A stretch of 5,745 bases of DNA, from positions 1 through 5,745 of the forward strand of contig JAUXDE010000106.1 in the NCBI GenBank assembly GCA_030618495.1. Direction: 5' to 3'. The position numbers were made by a program, and so were the translations under genes. The stretch is from Clostridia bacterium. GTDB lineage: Bacteria > UBA6262 > WVXT01 > JAUXBS01. Shown here in pieces: positions 15 to 5,745 of this stretch (position 1 is the first letter of the stretch; each line of letters begins with the position of its first letter). The notes under the pieces were generated by a model. The model was not told where the DNA came from. It saw only the letters and a program-made list of their open reading frames with translations, and did no database searches.

Positions 15-43
15 TTGACATTATACTTTTAAGGGTATATAAT
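15..43 (+). promoter_or_regulatory. sigma70-type promoter of the hipBST operon
   Basis: The -35 box TTGACA (15-20) and the -10 box TATAAT (38-43) both match the sigma70 consensus at every base, and the spacer is exactly 17 bp. Transcription would be expected to start near position 50, giving a leader of about 25 nt before the hipB ATG. An AAGGAG ribosome binding site lies at 60-65, 10 nt before that ATG. So strong a promoter fits a toxin-antitoxin operon held down by its own repressor. The assignment rests on consensus match only. Confidence 0.88.
22..39. promoter_or_regulatory. candidate HipB operator inside the promoter spacer
   Basis: An inverted repeat TATAC (22-26), eight bases, GTATA (35-39) fills the spacer between the -35 and -10 boxes and overlaps the first two bases of the -10 box. 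The geometry equals that of the E. coli hipBA operators (TATCC-N8-GGATA, established knowledge), with one base changed in each half-site. A HipB dimer bound here would exclude RNA polymerase. The inverted repeat is seen directly; binding by this HipB is inferred. Confidence 0.6.
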
Positions 44-68: not shown

Positions 69-84
69 TATTATCATGATAATA
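69..84. promoter_or_regulatory. perfect 16-bp palindrome over the hipB start codon
   Basis: TATTATCATGATAATA is its own reverse complement and is centred on the AT of the hipB ATG (76-78). As DNA it could be a second HipB site (TATC-AT-GATA core), 46 bp centre to centre from the spacer repeat. As RNA it could fold into a six-pair A-U stem with the AUG in a CAUG tetraloop, four bases after the AAGGAG site. Either reading would affect hipB expression. The palindrome is certain; its function is inferred. Confidence 0.5.
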
Positions 85-276
85 GGAGAAAAGGTAAAAC
101 AATTGAGAAGAAAAACGAATCTTACTCAAGTTGAATTTGCCCGGAGAGCCGGCATTGGTCTTCGCTTTATTAGAAAACTTGAGCAGAAAAAACCTACTGT
201 CAGGCTTGATAAAGTCAATCAGGTTCTTGATTTCCTGGGATATCATTTAGAGGTTATTAAGAATGAGAGAAAATAA
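76..276 (+). CDS. hipB: HipB-type antitoxin / autorepressor (XRE-family HTH)
   Basis: This 66-residue protein is almost entirely one XRE/Cro-type helix-turn-helix domain. It starts GEKVKQLRRKTNLTQ, the HTH spans about residues 17-37 (TQVEFARRAG then IGLRFIRKLEQ), and the closing helix contains PTVRLDKVNQVLDFLG (40-55). The FIRxLEQ-KPTVRLDK pattern is typical of the small regulators paired with HipA kinases (y4mF-like group). Expected role: dimeric DNA-binding protein that represses its own operon and helps contain the kinase. It is shorter than E. coli K-12 HipB (88 residues). The ATG at 76 is chosen because AAGGAG lies 10 nt upstream and the protein begins right at the conserved domain. The 3' end overlaps hipS by 14 nt. 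Codon use is strongly AT-rich. Family is confident; the operator contacts are inferred. Confidence 0.9.
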   Translation: MIIGEKVKQLRRKTNLTQVEFARRAGIGLRFIRKLEQKKPTVRLDKVNQVLDFLGYHLEVIKNERK

Positions 277-589
277 ATACAGGACAGCGGTTGTTTTATT
301 TAAGAATGAAGAAGCAGGAGTATTGAGAGAAACAGAGAATGGGTATATGTTTGAATACAGCGCAGAATTTATAAGGAAAAACATAGCTATTTCCGCTTCA
401 CTGCCTGCCGGTAAGGAATGTTATAGAAGCCAACGATTATTCTCATTTTTTAAGGGGCTTATTCCGGAAGGCTGGTATTTTAATTTGGTGTGCGCTACGT
501 TGAAGATTGACAAACATGATACTTTTGGTATTCTGCTTTCTACATGCAAGGATAATATCGGCGCAGTATCAATAAAGGAAATCAAATGA
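263..589 (+). CDS. hipS: HipS-like protein (separate HipA N-terminal subdomain)
   Basis: This 108-residue protein matches the N-terminal 'couple_hipA' domain of HipA and nothing more. The order is a short beta start (TAVVLFKNEEAGVLRE, 8-23), FEYSAEFI (30-37), ISASLPAGKECY (43-54), LFSFFKGLIPEGW (59-71) and DTFGILLSTCKDNIGAVSI (86-104). In classical HipA this segment is fused to the kinase; here it ends and the kinase starts in another frame. In the E. coli O127 HipBST system, HipS of about this size is the antitoxin, and as I recall a Trp of HipS reaches the HipT active site. Trp71 after PEG is the natural counterpart. The start overlaps hipB and has a weak AGAGG at 249-253; the stop overlaps the hipT start as ATGA. 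Antitoxin function is inferred by analogy. Confidence 0.85.
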   Translation: MRENKYRTAVVLFKNEEAGVLRETENGYMFEYSAEFIRKNIAISASLPAGKECYRSQRLFSFFKGLIPEGWYFNLVCATLKIDKHDTFGILLSTCKDNIGAVSIKEIK

Positions 590-1500
590 AAAAATGTTTT
601 TCTTGCGGGGAAAAAATAGAGGAAGAAAAGACAATTCATGAACATTGTCTGAAAAAACTCTTTGGAATTGAATATTTGCCGGCAGTGAATCTAAGTTTAT
701 CGGAAGTGACTATTAAAGCGCAGGAAGCTGCGGGAAAGTTGTCCATATCCGGGGTGCAACCCAAGCTGTCTATGAGATTGAATCTTGAGAAGAAGGAGTT
801 GGAATCCGTTGGCCAGGGGGGGGAATACATACTGAAACCCCAGGGGGCAACTTTTCCGGATATACCGCAAAATGAAAATACTTGTATGATTATCGCATCA
901 AAGGTCGGAATATTAACTCCGCCTCATACTCTTATCAGGTTAAAGGATGATACACTGGCTTATATTGTGAAAAGGTTTGACAGGAAAAACGGAGAAAGAA
1001 TTCACCAGGAGGATTTCCTGCAGATTTTAGACAAGGAAGACAGGTATGACGGTTCTTTTGAACAAATTGGAAGGAGAGTAAAAGAGTTGTCGGAGGTTCC
1101 CGGTTTGGATGTTCAATACTTCTATACAAGAGTTCTTTTTTTCTTTCTGATAGGCAACGGCGACGCTCACCTTAAGAACTTTTCAGTACTGTACGATAAT
1201 GACGGGAATGCCAGGCTTTCCCCCGTATACGATATTGTTTCATCTAAGTTGGTAATACCGAATGAGGATGATACTGCCTTAGCATTGAACGGCAAAAAAA
1301 ATGACATTAATGCCCGGGATTTCCATTCTTTGATGAACTATTTGCAGATTAAAGACAAGAGAATAAACAAGGAATTACTGGAAAAAATAGACACCATTAA
1401 AGATACGGTAAAAAATTCAATCATGGAAGATAGCAGGCGGAATAACCTTCTTGAGATTATAGAAAAAAGATACAATAGAGTAAGAGATTTACTGAGCTAA
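586..1500 (+). CDS. hipT: HipT-like Ser/Thr kinase toxin (HipA C-terminal core)
   Basis: A 304-residue kinase core of the HipA family without the N-terminal subdomain (E. coli HipA is 440 residues, O127 HipT about 335). Visible elements: a Cys/His-rich start (C4-x2-C7, H18, H20, C21); Gly-rich loop LSISGVQPKLS (52-62) with Ser53 and Ser55 matching the SIS autophosphorylation motif of HipT; YILKP (81-85) with the ATP-binding Lys84; IVKRFDR (127-133); catalytic loop GNGDAHLKNF (190-199) with Asp193; and metal-binding SPVYDIVS (212-219) with Asp216. All key residues are present, so the kinase should be active. Known relatives phosphorylate aminoacyl-tRNA synthetases (GltX for HipA, TrpS for HipT); the target here cannot be read from sequence. 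AAAGGAA (574-580) precedes the ATG, which overlaps the hipS stop. An 8-G run (816-823) and an 8-A run (1294-1301) interrupt the gene. Confidence 0.9.
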   Translation: MKKCFSCGEKIEEEKTIHEHCLKKLFGIEYLPAVNLSLSEVTIKAQEAAGKLSISGVQPKLSMRLNLEKKELESVGQGGEYILKPQGATFPDIPQNENTCMIIASKVGILTPPHTLIRLKDDTLAYIVKRFDRKNGERIHQEDFLQILDKEDRYDGSFEQIGRRVKELSEVPGLDVQYFYTRVLFFFLIGNGDAHLKNFSVLYDNDGNARLSPVYDIVSSKLVIPNEDDTALALNGKKNDINARDFHSLMNYLQIKDKRINKELLEKIDTIKDTVKNSIMEDSRRNNLLEIIEKRYNRVRDLLS

Positions 1501-3467
1501 TGAAAACCTATTCTAAATTTATTATTCTAATAATTATTGTTTCTGTTCTTGTTTACGCAAATTCCGTAAGGAACGGATTTGTCTTTGATGATAAATTCAT
1601 CATCCAGAAGAATGATGTAATAAGAGACATGTCCAACATTTCCCGTATATTCAAATCAACTTACTGGCCCCAGGTCCAGGGAGAACCCAACAAGGGGCTG
1701 TACAGGCCGTTGACGGTGCTGTCCTATGCCGTAAATTACAGTATTGGCGGATTAAACCCTGCCGGCTATCATGTTATTAACATTTTAACACACACATTTA
1801 ACGGAGTACTCCTATTCATCATAATGTTATTTGTATTAAAGGAAGACAACAATGCGGAATTGATTGCTCTTGCAGTGGCGCTGCTCTTCGTTTCACACCC
1901 GGTGAACACCGAAGCGGTATCCGGCGTTGTCGGCAGGGCGGATACGATGGCAACGTTGTTTGTCCTTCTTTCATTCCTGTTTTATATACGGATAAGGCCT
2001 GCCGCGCCGCGGCGGGCTCCCATTCAACAGGCTCAGGGCAGGCATAGAGGTAAACAGGCGCCCGGGACAAAAGCCGCGGGCCTGTCTAAAACCGTTAACC
2101 TTACGCAAGACAGGGTGAGTCTAAAATACTATATAATGTCACTTGCTTTTTTTGCCGCGGGCCTGCTGACAAAGGAGATAGCCGTAACACTGCCCGGTAT
2201 GATTATCCTGTACGACATGTCCTTTGCGGGAAAAGCCGGATTTAAACTAAAAAATAATTTAAGGTATTACGCGGGATATCTTGCCGTTGCCGCATCATAC
2301 ATGATGATAAGGTTCAGTGTTGTCGGTTCCGTGGGGCCCACGGCCATCAAGCAGGTCATGCAAACACATGGCCTGGCGGTAAGGTTTTTTACGGTGGCAA
2401 AGGTTTTCGCGAGTTACATTAAACTGATGTTTTATCCTCTGAATCTCTATTGCGACTATAACAGCTCCTTCCCCTACGCGCTGTCCGTAACGGAGCCGGG
2501 AGTTATCATATCCATTATTCTATTATTTGCGGTTCTGTTGTTGTTTGTTGTTTCCTATAGGAAAAGAAAACAGGTTTTCTTTTCCCTGGGCTGGTTCCTG
2601 GCTGCCATTTTCCCAGTAAGCCAGATTATACCTATAGGAGCCATAATGGCTGAAAGGTTCCTTTACCTGCCGGTCATAGGGTTCTGCATGCTGATGGGGA
2701 TATGCGTATCGGAGATTATCAAGAAGAAGAAAGCGCCTGTCTTCATGGTTTTTATCGCGTTCATCGTCCTGTTCTTCTCGGCAAGGGCCATCAGGCGCAA
2801 CCTTGACTGGTACAGTGACTATAACCTCTGGACGAATACCGTCAATGCGAAACCGGAAGTCGGCAGGGCGTACTATGAACTTGGTACCGCAGCCCTGAAG
2901 GAAAAAAAGTACGATGAAACGATTGAAGCGATGGAGAAATGCATTGAACTCAGCAGGAAGGTGACGGACAACGACAGGAAGCGTTATGCCCTTCTCCCTG
3001 AAACTTACTTACACTGGGTGTGGATGAACCTGGGCCTTGCCTACCAGAAAAAAGATAGGATTGACAATGCCATCTACGCGTATAAAAAATCAATGGAGGT
3101 AAAGCCGGATTATGCCGCGGCGTACAATAATCTCGGGAACGTTTACCTGGAAAAGGGCATGGTTGACGAGGCAATCCTGGAATTCAGGCACTGTATCGCA
3201 ATAGGGCCAAATGTACCCGAGGGGCACTACAATCTCGGTATTGCCTACTCCAGGAAGGGCAACGATGACAGGGCGCTGGAACTGTACAAGAAAGCCGCCG
3301 GGATAGGTCCGGGCTATGCAGAGGCGTGGAATGCGGCAGGCATTATTGAGTACAACAGGGGTAACTACCAAAGAGCGGCGGAGTTATTCAAGAAGGCATT
3401 TGAAGCCAACCCGAATTTCACCGCGGCTAAGAATAACTATGATTTAAGCATCAGGCAACGGAACTAA
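1500..3467 (+). CDS. TMTC-like polytopic membrane protein (GT-C type) with C-terminal TPRs
   Basis: A 655-residue integral membrane protein. The first helix (about 7-20) leads to NGFVFDDKFI (25-34), whose Asp30-Asp31 pair in the first external loop fits the GT-C acidic motif. About ten further hydrophobic segments follow up to residue 428. Diagnostic patches resemble eukaryotic TMTC O-mannosyltransferases: VVGRADTMATLF (143-154), LLTKEIAVTLP (222-232), FYPLNLYCDY (311-320, DUF1736-like) and MAERFLYLPVIGF (383-395). Five TPR units follow at about 455-488, 503-537, 538-571, 572-605 and 606-639. By topology of the family, the TPRs should face the non-cytoplasmic side. Likely role: lipid-linked sugar transfer to proteins; donor and acceptor are unknown. 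An odd basic, GC-rich stretch (about 165-200) sits between membrane segments and seems to derive from an inserted repeat. The ATG shares one base with the hipT stop and lacks a good ribosome binding site, suggesting coupled translation. Family confident, activity not. Confidence 0.82.
   Translation: MKTYSKFIILIIIVSVLVYANSVRNGFVFDDKFIIQKNDVIRDMSNISRIFKSTYWPQVQGEPNKGLYRPLTVLSYAVNYSIGGLNPAGYHVINILTHTFNGVLLFIIMLFVLKEDNNAELIALAVALLFVSHPVNTEAVSGVVGRADTMATLFVLLSFLFYIRIRPAAPRRAPIQQAQGRHRGKQAPGTKAAGLSKTVNLTQDRVSLKYYIMSLAFFAAGLLTKEIAVTLPGMIILYDMSFAGKAGFKLKNNLRYYAGYLAVAASYMMIRFSVVGSVGPTAIKQVMQTHGLAVRFFTVAKVFASYIKLMFYPLNLYCDYNSSFPYALSVTEPGVIISIILLFAVLLLFVVSYRKRKQVFFSLGWFLAAIFPVSQIIPIGAIMAERFLYLPVIGFCMLMGICVSEIIKKKKAPVFMVFIAFIVLFFSARAIRRNLDWYSDYNLWTNTVNAKPEVGRAYYELGTAALKEKKYDETIEAMEKCIELSRKVTDNDRKRYALLPETYLHWVWMNLGLAYQKKDRIDNAIYAYKKSMEVKPDYAAAYNNLGNVYLEKGMVDEAILEFRHCIAIGPNVPEGHYNLGIAYSRKGNDDRALELYKKAAGIGPGYAEAWNAAGIIEYNRGNYQRAAELFKKAFEANPNFTAAKNNYDLSIRQRN
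1997..2085. repeat. GC-rich palindromic repeat embedded in the TMTC-like gene
   Basis: About 62 of these 89 bases are G or C (hand count), far above the flanks. Bases 1997-2017 form an imperfect palindrome around GCCGCGCCGCGGC. GCCTGCC (1997-2003) is repeated inverted as GGCAGGC (2037-2043), bounding a 47-bp unit. Inside it, the minus strand of 2019-2037 reads CCTGAGCCTGTTGAATGGG, close to a CCTGAGCCTGTCGAAGGG-like interspersed repeat that I recall from environmental bacterial genomes, where it often yields 'PEPVE' in spurious translations. A second imperfect hairpin pairs ACAGGC (2054-2059) with GCCTGT (2080-2085). The host reading frame stays open, encoding a basic Pro/Ala/Gln/Gly-rich segment. 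Structure is seen directly; identity as a mobile repeat is inferred. Confidence 0.6.
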
Positions 3468-3470
3468 AAA

Positions 3471-5420
3471 ATGACTCAACCGGATACAACTAAAGATCTA
3501 TTTGAAAAACTTAATGAGCAGCAAAAGGAAGCTGTCCGGCATATAAACGGCCAATTGCTTATCCTTGCGGGCGCGGGTTCGGGCAAGACCAGGGTTATCA
3601 CCAACCGCATAGCTTACATGGTGAGCCAGGGTATTTCACCGTTCAATATCCTTGCCGTTACCTTTACCAATAAAGCTGCGGACGAGATGCGTAACCGCGT
3701 GAAAACCCTTACGGGCGCAAAGGGGCAGGGTGTCACCATCTCCACCTTTCATTCATTCTGCGCGAAGGTGCTTCGTTCGGACATAGAGAAGATAGGCGGC
3801 AGCAGGTACTTCACGATATACAACGATAATGACCAGGAGGATGTAATCAAGCAGTGCATGAAAGAACTTGATATTGACAGCAAGAGGTACACTCCTTCCA
3901 CTTTCAAATGGGCAATCAACAGGGCAAAGGACAGTCTCCTGGACCCCGGGGAGTACGCCAGCCAGCACCTGCCGAATGAAGGGAGCATCGAAAATCTGGT
4001 GATGAAAGTTTATAAACTATACCAGAAAAAGGTAGATGACAGTTCGGGTGTTGATTTCGGGGACCTGCTCCTTAAGACCGTTAAACTATTAAGAACGAAT
4101 GAAGCAGTAAGGGAGAAATACCAAAAACAGTTCACCTACGTCATGGTGGACGAATACCAGGATACGAACTACGCCCAGTACATTCTTATTAAGATACTTG
4201 CCCGGAAGCACGGCAATATTTGTGTGGTGGGAGACGATGACCAGAACATATACACGTGGCGAGGGGCGGATATAAACAACATACTGGGTTTTGAAAAGGA
4301 CTATGACAACGTGAAGGTGATTAAACTTGAACAGAACTACCGTTCTACGAAAAACATCCTGGACATTGCCTGGAATGTTGTTAAAAACAACCTGAACAGG
4401 AAGGAGAAGAAACTCTGGACCTCGAGGGAACAGGGTTCCCAGGTGCAGTACGAACAGCTTAACAGGGAGACCGACGAGGCGTATCTTGTGGTTTCGGAGA
4501 TAGACCGGCTCCTGGAAGAGGAGGAATACAACCTCAGCGATTTTGCCGTATTCTACCGCACCAATGCACAGTCGCGCGTACTGGAGGACGCCCTGCGCAG
4601 GGCGCGCATGAACTACAAGATTGTCGGCAATGTGAGGTTCTACGACAGGAAGGAAATCAAGGATATACTTGGATACCTTCGTGTTATAGTCAACACTGCG
4701 GATTCAATAAGCCTTAAAAGAATCATAAACTCGCCTGCCCGGGGGATAGGCAAGACAACGATTGAGCGTGTTGAGGGGTATGCCCGGAAACATGACATAT
4801 CGTTGTTTGAAGCTTTGAAGAAGTACGGGATGATAAAGGAGATAAGACCGGCCTCAGGAAAAGCGATACAGAAGTTTGTTGACCTCATGAACTCCTTCAG
4901 GGCAGAGAAAAAAGGCATGGAGGCAGGGGGGCTTGCAAAGGACGTTATTGAGAAGACGGGATACAGGAAGGGGCTGGAGGAGGAAGGAACCACGGAGGCC
5001 GCGAGCAGGCTTGAGAACATCAAGGAGCTGGTTTCCGCAATCAGCGATTTTGAGGAGGAGTCCGGGAATAAAAGCGTTGAATCCTTTCTTGAAAGGGCTT
5101 CGCTTGTTTCAGGGGTGGATGCATGGAAGCCTGAGGAGGATTACCTCACGCTCATGACCCTGCACCTTGCAAAGGGGCTGGAGTTTCCCGTCGTGTTCAT
5201 GACGGGCCTTGAGGAGGGGCTTTTCCCGCACGTGACGGGTTTTGACGACCCGGCGGAACTCGAAGAGGAAAGACGCCTGTGTTATGTTGGCATAACCAGG
5301 GCAAAGGACAGGCTGTACCTGACTTCCGCGTCTGAAAGGAAACTTTACGGGCAGTCGCGCTGGAACATGCCGTCAAGGTTCATAAGGGAGGCTGGACTGG
5401 CTATCAGCGATGATGAATAA
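3471..5420 (+). CDS. uvrD: UvrD/PcrA-like superfamily 1 DNA helicase, short C-terminus
   Basis: A 649-residue ATP-dependent 3'-5' DNA helicase of the UvrD/PcrA/Rep group, a cytoplasmic enzyme of excision repair, recombination control and replication restart. All SF1A motifs are present: Q motif LNEQQKEAV (14-22), Walker A AGAGSGKT (33-40), Ia VTFTNKAADEM (63-73), Ib STFHSFCAKVLR (91-102), II YVMVDEYQDTN (223-233), III VVGDDDQNIYTWRGAD (252-267), IV LEQNYRS (286-292), V TLHLAKGLEFPVVF (563-576), and VI RRLCYVGITRAKDRLYL (601-617). Arg610 in motif VI is the expected ATP-contacting arginine. The protein ends shortly after WNMPSRFI (631-638), so it lacks the roughly 70-100 residue tail of UvrD/PcrA that carries the Tudor-like, RNA polymerase-contacting fold. 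The stop abuts a terminator, so this is the natural end. It starts 3 nt after the preceding stop. GC content is higher than in the hip genes. UvrD, PcrA and Rep orthology cannot be separated here. Confidence 0.93.
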   Translation: MTQPDTTKDLFEKLNEQQKEAVRHINGQLLILAGAGSGKTRVITNRIAYMVSQGISPFNILAVTFTNKAADEMRNRVKTLTGAKGQGVTISTFHSFCAKVLRSDIEKIGGSRYFTIYNDNDQEDVIKQCMKELDIDSKRYTPSTFKWAINRAKDSLLDPGEYASQHLPNEGSIENLVMKVYKLYQKKVDDSSGVDFGDLLLKTVKLLRTNEAVREKYQKQFTYVMVDEYQDTNYAQYILIKILARKHGNICVVGDDDQNIYTWRGADINNILGFEKDYDNVKVIKLEQNYRSTKNILDIAWNVVKNNLNRKEKKLWTSREQGSQVQYEQLNRETDEAYLVVSEIDRLLEEEEYNLSDFAVFYRTNAQSRVLEDALRRARMNYKIVGNVRFYDRKEIKDILGYLRVIVNTADSISLKRIINSPARGIGKTTIERVEGYARKHDISLFEALKKYGMIKEIRPASGKAIQKFVDLMNSFRAEKKGMEAGGLAKDVIEKTGYRKGLEEEGTTEAASRLENIKELVSAISDFEEESGNKSVESFLERASLVSGVDAWKPEEDYLTLMTLHLAKGLEFPVVFMTGLEEGLFPHVTGFDDPAELEEERRLCYVGITRAKDRLYLTSASERKLYGQSRWNMPSRFIREAGLAISDDE

Positions 5421-5497: not shown

Positions 5498-5745
5498 TTA
5501 TTCGATACTAACGGTTACTGTCGGTTTATCCAGTGATGCTCCGCTCCCGCTGATAACCACTAAATCGGTCACGTCAAAGATGAAGTTTATTGAAGTCTGA
5601 ACACTATCCTCTATTATAAACGCTGCCGATAAGGTGTTATCGGTAGTCTTCCACACGTAAGGGTTGTTAGCAGCGTAGCCGGTCAGGCTTCCCTCAACAG
5701 TTGTGGTACCAACTACAACCTCGCCGGTTATTTCATCCCCTATTT
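5498..5745 (-). CDS. C-terminal end of an unrecognised beta-rich protein (partial)
   Basis: On the - strand a frame is open from the window edge to a TAA at 5498-5500, giving the last 81 residues of a protein whose start lies beyond base 5745. I do not recognise it. The visible part begins IGDEITGEVVVGTTTVEGS, continues with AANNPYVWKTTDNT and FIIEDSVQTSINFIFDVTD, and ends GASLDKPTVTVSIE. Alternating hydrophobic residues with many Thr, Val, Ser, Gly and Asn, and no Cys, suggest a beta-sandwich of the kind found in secreted or surface proteins. No LPXTG, PEP-CTERM or terminal membrane helix is visible. Support for coding: an uninterrupted 82-codon frame, plausible composition, and a terminator just past its stop. 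It is convergent with the helicase, with 77 bp between stop codons. Function unknown. Confidence 0.65.
   Translation of the reverse strand, partial: IGDEITGEVVVGTTTVEGSLTGYAANNPYVWKTTDNTLSAAFIIEDSVQTSINFIFDVTDLVVISGSGASLDKPTVTVSIE

What the first reader, a model, noticed from the sequence alone, without database searches (positions are those of the whole stretch)
76..1500. Complete tripartite HipBST-type toxin-antitoxin module with split HipA
Three overlapping genes encode a HipB-like HTH, a stand-alone HipA N-subdomain (HipS, 108 residues) and a kinase core (HipT, 304 residues). HipT keeps Lys84, Asp193 and Asp216 and has the SIS motif (Ser53, Ser55) in its Gly-rich loop; HipS keeps a Trp (71) at the position where I recall E. 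coli O127 HipS contacting HipT. In that system HipS, not HipB, is the main antitoxin. Gene order and overlaps make this a coherent module rather than a broken hipA.
Basis: partly seen in the sequence, partly recalled or inferred. Interest (0 to 1): 0.7.

Follow-up and report, generated by a model that had tools for sequence, protein, structure and literature searches.

The report
HipBST toxin-antitoxin module, zinc-site subtype
This is a real three-gene bacterial self-poisoning switch (hipBST: repressor, antidote, kinase toxin) of a known kind, belonging to a widespread branch whose toxin carries an apparently undescribed zinc-site-like head and whose promoter carries an apparently undescribed array of repressor-binding sites.

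Summary
Profiles, PDB sequence searches, a confident AlphaFold model (pLDDT 95.7) and Foldseek place HipS and HipT with the solved HipBST complexes of Legionella and E. coli O127. In 95 of 104 related loci from many phyla hipA is split in the same way, so this is not a broken hipA. The module is a member of a known kind.

(1) HipT residues 4-21 form CxxC-X10-HxxC in the N-terminal mini-domain that the O127 structure paper calls 'of unknown significance'. Of 95 split HipTs, 64 have all of C7/H18/C21, 27 none, 4 are mixed. I infer a zinc site. (2) A HipB operator, TATACCC-N4-GGGTATA, recurs in arrays spaced 40-42 bp upstream of hipB across phyla; in the window one copy lies inside a perfect sigma-70 promoter. 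Neither feature appeared in the papers I could search.

Toxicity, neutralisation by HipS, zinc binding and HipB-operator binding are inferred; the kinase target is unknown.

The parts
15..43 (+). sigma-70 promoter of the operon: TTGACA 15-20, 17-nt spacer, TATAAT 38-43
   Evidence: 12 of 12 consensus matches; a consensus match, not a mapped start
22..39 (.). putative HipB operator TATACTTTTAAGGGTATA (TATAC-N8-GTATA) inside the promoter spacer
   Evidence: 0 expected by chance in the window; one other site in the genome, within a coding frame; conserved phased array in relatives and four copies in the congener
76..276 (+). hipB, 66-aa HTH repressor; recognition helix GLRFIRKLE
   Evidence: TIGR03070 74.4 bits, PF01381; Arg30 and Arg33 kept in 66 and 67 of 67 operator-bearing relatives
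263..589 (+). hipS, 108-aa stand-alone HipA N-subdomain 1, putative antitoxin
   Evidence: PF13657 79.7 bits; model pLDDT 90.8, top Foldseek hits HipS of Legionella and O127
464..475 (+). HipS PEGW motif, residues 68-71 (Glu69, Trp71)
   Evidence: aligned with O127 Glu63/Trp65; Trp in 75 of 95 split modules
586..1500 (+). hipT, 304-aa atypical Ser/Thr kinase, putative toxin
   Evidence: PF07804 164.8 bits; PDB 8ezr_B 5e-44; model pLDDT 95.7; Foldseek 7wcf E 2e-27
595..648 (+). HipT mini-domain CxxC-X10-HxxC (Cys4, Cys7, His18, Cys21), predicted zinc site
   Evidence: C7/H18/C21 all present in 64, all absent in 27, mixed in 4 of 95 relatives; two short strands then a helix, pLDDT about 95
742..765 (+). 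HipT Gly-rich loop SISGVQPK, residues 53-60
   Evidence: alignment; flexible in the model, residues 52-55 pLDDT below 50
835..837 (+). HipT Lys84
   Evidence: invariant in 71 HipTs
1162..1164 (+). HipT catalytic Asp193
   Evidence: invariant in 71 HipTs
1231..1233 (+). HipT Mg-binding Asp216
   Evidence: invariant in 71 HipTs

Best explanation
This is an intact, self-regulated hipBST toxin-antitoxin operon. HipT is an atypical Ser/Thr kinase that stops growth by phosphorylating a cellular protein, most plausibly an aminoacyl-tRNA synthetase. HipS, the detached N-subdomain 1 of HipA, sits over the kinase N-lobe and neutralises it, with Glu69 and Trp71 placed at the Gly-rich loop, which carries two potentially autophosphorylated serines. 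HipB is a small repressor whose dimers bind a phased series of TATACCC-N4-GGGTATA operators, one of them inside the promoter spacer, so that HipB, probably with HipT and HipS, shuts off its own promoter. The module belongs to a large clade whose HipT begins with a CxxC-X(n)-HxxC mini-domain that probably holds a structural zinc ion. Shown here by computation: gene identity, motifs, fold, operator array, cross-phylum conservation. Inferred: kinase toxicity, neutralisation by HipS, autorepression, zinc binding, target class.
For: Family matches; nearest solved structures are HipT/HipS of Legionella and O127; confident models and Foldseek; same split three-gene order in 95 of 104 loci; invariant catalytic residues; perfect promoter; operator 2.03 per locus upstream against 0.016 in shuffles, 102 of 118 successive copies 40-42 bp apart; HipB recognition-helix arginines kept with the operator; experiments on relatives show HipS neutralises and HipB does not (PMC6581861; PMC10653801).
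Against: No experiment on this module or, as far as I found, on any CCHC HipT. HipB could contribute to neutralisation here. Zinc geometry could not be measured. The operator consensus was drawn from the same loci in which it was counted. Some HipTs (Vibrio) were not toxic in E. coli.
Confidence: 0.82

Rival explanations
1. A decaying or frameshift-split hipA that has lost function.
For: HipS and HipT together correspond to one HipA protein.
Against: 95 of 104 related loci have the same split; both parts keep their invariant residues; promoter and operator are intact; the congener copy is almost identical and open.
Confidence: 0.02
2. A kinase toxin of the same architecture but working on a target other than TrpS or GltX, as in Legionella.
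For: This HipT is nearer by score to Legionella HipT, whose toxicity is relieved by neither TrpS nor GltX (PMC10653801).
Against: The S-psi-S loop and HipS Trp are shared with O127 HipBST, which targets TrpS. TrpS and GltX with the usual KMSKS and KLSKR motifs are present in this genome, but those motifs are near universal and not informative.
Confidence: 0.45
3. HipB is the main antitoxin, as in hipBA, and HipS only assists.
For: HipB comes first in the operon and binds HipT in studied systems.
Against: The 66-aa HipB ends 8 residues after the HTH domain, without the long tail recalled for E. coli HipB; in every hipBST tested, HipS neutralises and HipB alone does not.
Confidence: 0.06
4. The CxxC/HxxC residues are only structural or redox-active and bind no metal.
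For: The mini-domain exists without these residues in Legionella and O127 HipT, and a few close relatives of the window lack it.
Against: The three variable ligands come and go together (64 all, 27 none, 4 mixed), at zinc-knuckle spacing, with a strand-strand-helix model.
Confidence: 0.2

Closest known systems
hipBST of Legionella pneumophila (Lpg2368-2370; PDB 7vkb, 7wcf, 8ezr)
   Same: Gene order, split hipA, HipS and HipT folds, highest sequence score (154 bits; profile 381 bits); small HipB; several 18-bp operators, one overlapping the promoter.
   Different: S-psi-Q loop and no Trp at the HipS contact; mini-domain lacks the Cys/His ligands; operators have another sequence and 53-bp gaps.
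hipBST of E. coli O127:H6 (PDB 7ab3, 7ab4, 7ab5)
   Same: Gene order, overlaps, S-psi-S loop, HipS Trp at the same place, kinase motifs.
   Different: More distant in sequence (84 bits; profile 164 bits); mini-domain without Cys7/His18/Cys21; HipB 107 aa instead of 66.
hipBA of E. coli K-12 and Shewanella
   Same: Kinase core, HTH repressor gene first; operator with 5-nt arms around 8 nt (TATCC-N8-GGATA, recalled, not looked up).
   Different: HipA is one protein and HipB its antitoxin; arms here are TATAC/GTATA.
hipJS and hipIN modules (Gerdes et al. 2021)
   Same: Short kinases with a HipS-like antitoxin (PMC8262856).
   Different: There the antitoxin gene lies downstream of the kinase and no hipB is described as part of them; here hipB-hipS-hipT.

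Membership tests
hipBST tripartite toxin-antitoxin family | Three-gene operon in the order hipB, hipS, hipT with short overlaps | tested here: met
   76-276, 263-589, 586-1500; overlaps 14 and 4 nt
hipBST tripartite toxin-antitoxin family | HipT is a HipA core kinase lacking N-subdomain 1, with Gly-rich loop, catalytic and Mg-binding motifs | tested here: met
   PF07804; invariant Lys84, Asp193, Asp216; fold
hipBST tripartite toxin-antitoxin family | HipS is a stand-alone N-subdomain 1 | tested here: met
   PF13657/TIGR03071; Foldseek to HipS chains
hipBST tripartite toxin-antitoxin family | HipT groups with clade III HipT kinases | tested here: inconclusive
   Nearest solved relatives are the two HipTs, and a Legionella HipT is in the tree, but O127 HipT and the published clade set were not placed on it
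hipBST tripartite toxin-antitoxin family | HipT toxic; HipS, not HipB, neutralises it | not testable with these tools
   needs expression tests
hipBA family | One-piece HipA kinase that contains N-subdomain 1 | tested here: not met
   N-subdomain and kinase are separate ORFs
zinc-binding knuckle-plus-helix domain (HipT mini-domain) | Co-conserved Cys/His ligands at CxxC and HxxC spacing | tested here: met
   64 all, 27 none, 4 mixed of 95
zinc-binding knuckle-plus-helix domain (HipT mini-domain) | Bound zinc with tetrahedral geometry | not testable with these tools
   model coordinates and metal content not available

The most novel reading that the evidence does not exclude
[quoted passage not shown] It may tune kinase activation or HipS/HipB binding in response to metal or thiol stress, in a clade that shares one HipB operator code across many phyla.
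Probability: 0.3. Interest if true: 0.6.

Novelty: new variant of a known kind. Interest (0 to 1): 0.42.

Why it matters
Both structurally characterised HipTs (E. coli O127 and Legionella) lack the Cys/His ligands, while most relatives found here, in Bacteroidota, Bacillota, Spirochaetota, Elusimicrobiota and others, have them. That gives a testable meaning to a domain left unexplained. The shared operator array offers a sequence signature for finding and comparing these modules and for testing how HipB, HipS and HipT control their own promoter.

Tried and rejected
Broken hipA: rejected. The second genome-wide TATAC-N8-GTATA site as another HipB target: it lies within a coding frame, so probably chance. 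A 16-bp palindrome over the hipB start codon (TATTATCATGATAATA) seen in the window: not kept in the congener, treated as chance. The odd stretch 1995-2095 of the downstream gene as a genome-wide repeat: only one copy found by DNA search. Target prediction from TrpS and GltX: the expected motifs are present but near universal, so uninformative. Defence-system models: only weak matches to the candidate family PDC-M03. No joint HipS-HipT-HipB model was attempted, since the structure tool takes single chains.

Full report
What is there. The window is the first 5,745 bases of contig C81 of a 1.69-Mb, 179-contig assembly, 98% complete. Three overlapping ORFs at 76-276, 263-589 and 586-1500 match couple_hipB (TIGR03070, 74.4 bits, cut-off 71.65), couple_hipA (TIGR03071, 82.4 bits; PF13657, 79.7 bits) and HipA_C (PF07804, 164.8 bits). 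The overlaps (14 and 4 nt) resemble those reported for E. coli O127 (16 and 1 nt; PMC6581861) and Legionella (4 and 4 nt; PMC9325769). Shine-Dalgarno-like AGGAG and AAGGA precede hipB and hipT.

Fold and relatives. By sequence, HipT's best solved relatives are Legionella HipT (5.3e-44) and O127 HipT (1.1e-22). A profile of 71 relatives gives 381 and 164 bits for the two. AlphaFold gives pLDDT 95.7 for HipT, with only residues 52-55, in the Gly-rich loop, forming a stretch below 50, and 90.8 for HipS. Foldseek ranks the Legionella and O127 HipT and HipS chains first, ahead of HipA. Of 104 related loci analysed from genome and viral contigs, 95 have separate HipS and HipT, nearly always with HipB upstream, and 6 are one-piece HipA. 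The retrieval was seeded with this kind of HipT, so these are not unbiased frequencies. The split is old and kept, not damage.

Distribution. The genome has no other HipA_C protein. The one congener available carries the module almost unchanged (hipB 1, hipS 0, hipT 4 differing codons). Four genomes of the same order lack it, which suggests gain in this genus or loss in the sister family; this is inference. On a tree of kinase cores the nearest outside relatives are MAGs labelled Omnitrophota and Elusimicrobiota, about 53-54% identical.

Mini-domain. HipT starts MKKCFSCGEKIEEEKTIHEHC. Cys4, Cys7, His18 and Cys21 align with Cys/Cys/His/Cys in 64 of 95 split HipTs. The ligands C7, H18 and C21 are all present in 64, all absent in 27 and mixed in 4, which is the pattern expected of a metal site rather than of independent residues, although shared descent inflates such counts. 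The model shows two short strands followed by a helix at residues 19-26, which holds Cys21, with His18 just before it, as in a zinc knuckle plus helix. Legionella and O127 HipT keep the first Cys only (alignments). The O127 structure paper calls residues 1-41 a mini-domain of unknown significance (PMC10627512). Earlier authors had aligned residues 4-28 of the Legionella protein with the RING-type ligase FANCL, which the structure paper rejected (PMC9325769); a degenerate zinc-domain origin would account for that old alignment, but this is speculation. Five close relatives of the window (L019, L020, L021, L022, L023) lack the full motif. Gain and loss cannot be told apart without a root and without O127 HipT on the tree.

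HipS-HipT match. HipS Trp71 (O127 Trp65, wedged into the Gly-rich-loop cavity) is Trp in 75 of 95 split modules. All 64 CCHC modules have Trp, while modules with an S-psi-Q loop never do. This fits a contact between the two sites, but the S-psi-Q modules form one clade, so shared descent may explain it.

Promoter and operator. A 12-of-12 sigma-70 promoter (TTGACA 15-20, TATAAT 38-43) precedes hipB. Its spacer holds TATACTTTTAAGGGTATA (22-39), of the form TATAC-N8-GTATA: none expected by chance in the window and only one other in the genome, inside a coding frame. The congener, whose contig extends further upstream, has four such sites at 54, 96, 137 and 168 bp before hipB; the window is cut by the contig end. 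Across relatives the consensus TATACCC-N4-GGGTATA (at least 11 of 14) occurs 2.03 times per locus within 400 bp upstream of hipB, against 0.016 in base-shuffled sequence, and 102 of 118 successive copies are 40-42 bp apart, about four helical turns. The consensus was drawn from these data, but palindrome enrichment at 6- and 8-nt spacers was seen beforehand without it, and the spacing was not used to define it. Sites were found in 57 of 62 CCHC loci with enough upstream sequence and in 0 of 16 loci of the S-psi-Q-like clade. In operator-bearing loci HipB recognition-helix Arg30 and Arg33 are kept in 66 and 67 of 67, but in few of the others. In Legionella, HipB binds three different 18-bp sites separated by 53-bp gaps and can recruit HipT and HipS (PMC10653801). 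I propose the same kind of autoregulation here with a different code. A text search for HipB, operator and GGGTATA found nothing, and HipT/HipS with zinc found nothing relevant. The library holds open-licence papers only, so priority is not established.

Function. The kinase core is intact. By analogy with tested systems HipT should be toxic and HipS should neutralise it. The target is open: O127 HipT hits TrpS, while Legionella HipT is rescued by neither TrpS nor GltX. TrpS and GltX of this genome carry the usual KMSKS and KLSKR motifs, which does not discriminate.

Verdict. The module itself is a member of a known kind. Its clade differs from the characterised members in the CCHC mini-domain and the operator array, hence 'new variant of a known kind', with the zinc site still inferred.

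Noticed in passing
window 1500-3467: Membrane-plus-TPR protein whose ATG overlaps the hipT stop by one base, so it may be co-transcribed with hipBST. Its paralogues are very numerous: 89 matches in this genome and 85 in the congener, against 15-27 in same-order genomes.
   Followed up: partly
window 1995-2095: Low-complexity insert-like stretch (RPAAPRRAPIQQAQGRHRGKQAPGTKAAG) inside the TPR-protein gene; single copy by DNA search in this genome.
   Followed up: partly
L003 347-715 (-), congener G001: HTH_Tnp_1 transposase fragment upstream of the operator array; the window's contig breaks at the matching place, perhaps because of a repeat.
   Followed up: partly
L006/L013 (G048:C28:4633-4975): A HipT remnant with in-frame stops in another phylum: a decayed copy 54-58% identical to this HipT.
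   Followed up: no
window 3471-5420: UvrD/PcrA-type helicase, 847 bits to TIGR01073 but under its cut-off of 911; 649 aa, it lacks the last ~95 positions of the model.
   Followed up: no
window 5498-5743 (-): Open-ended frame on the minus strand at the window's end with no Pfam match.
   Followed up: no
L095-L107 (viral contigs): 13 viral contigs carry HipT relatives, most with hipB and hipS, so the module travels on phages or prophages.
   Followed up: partly
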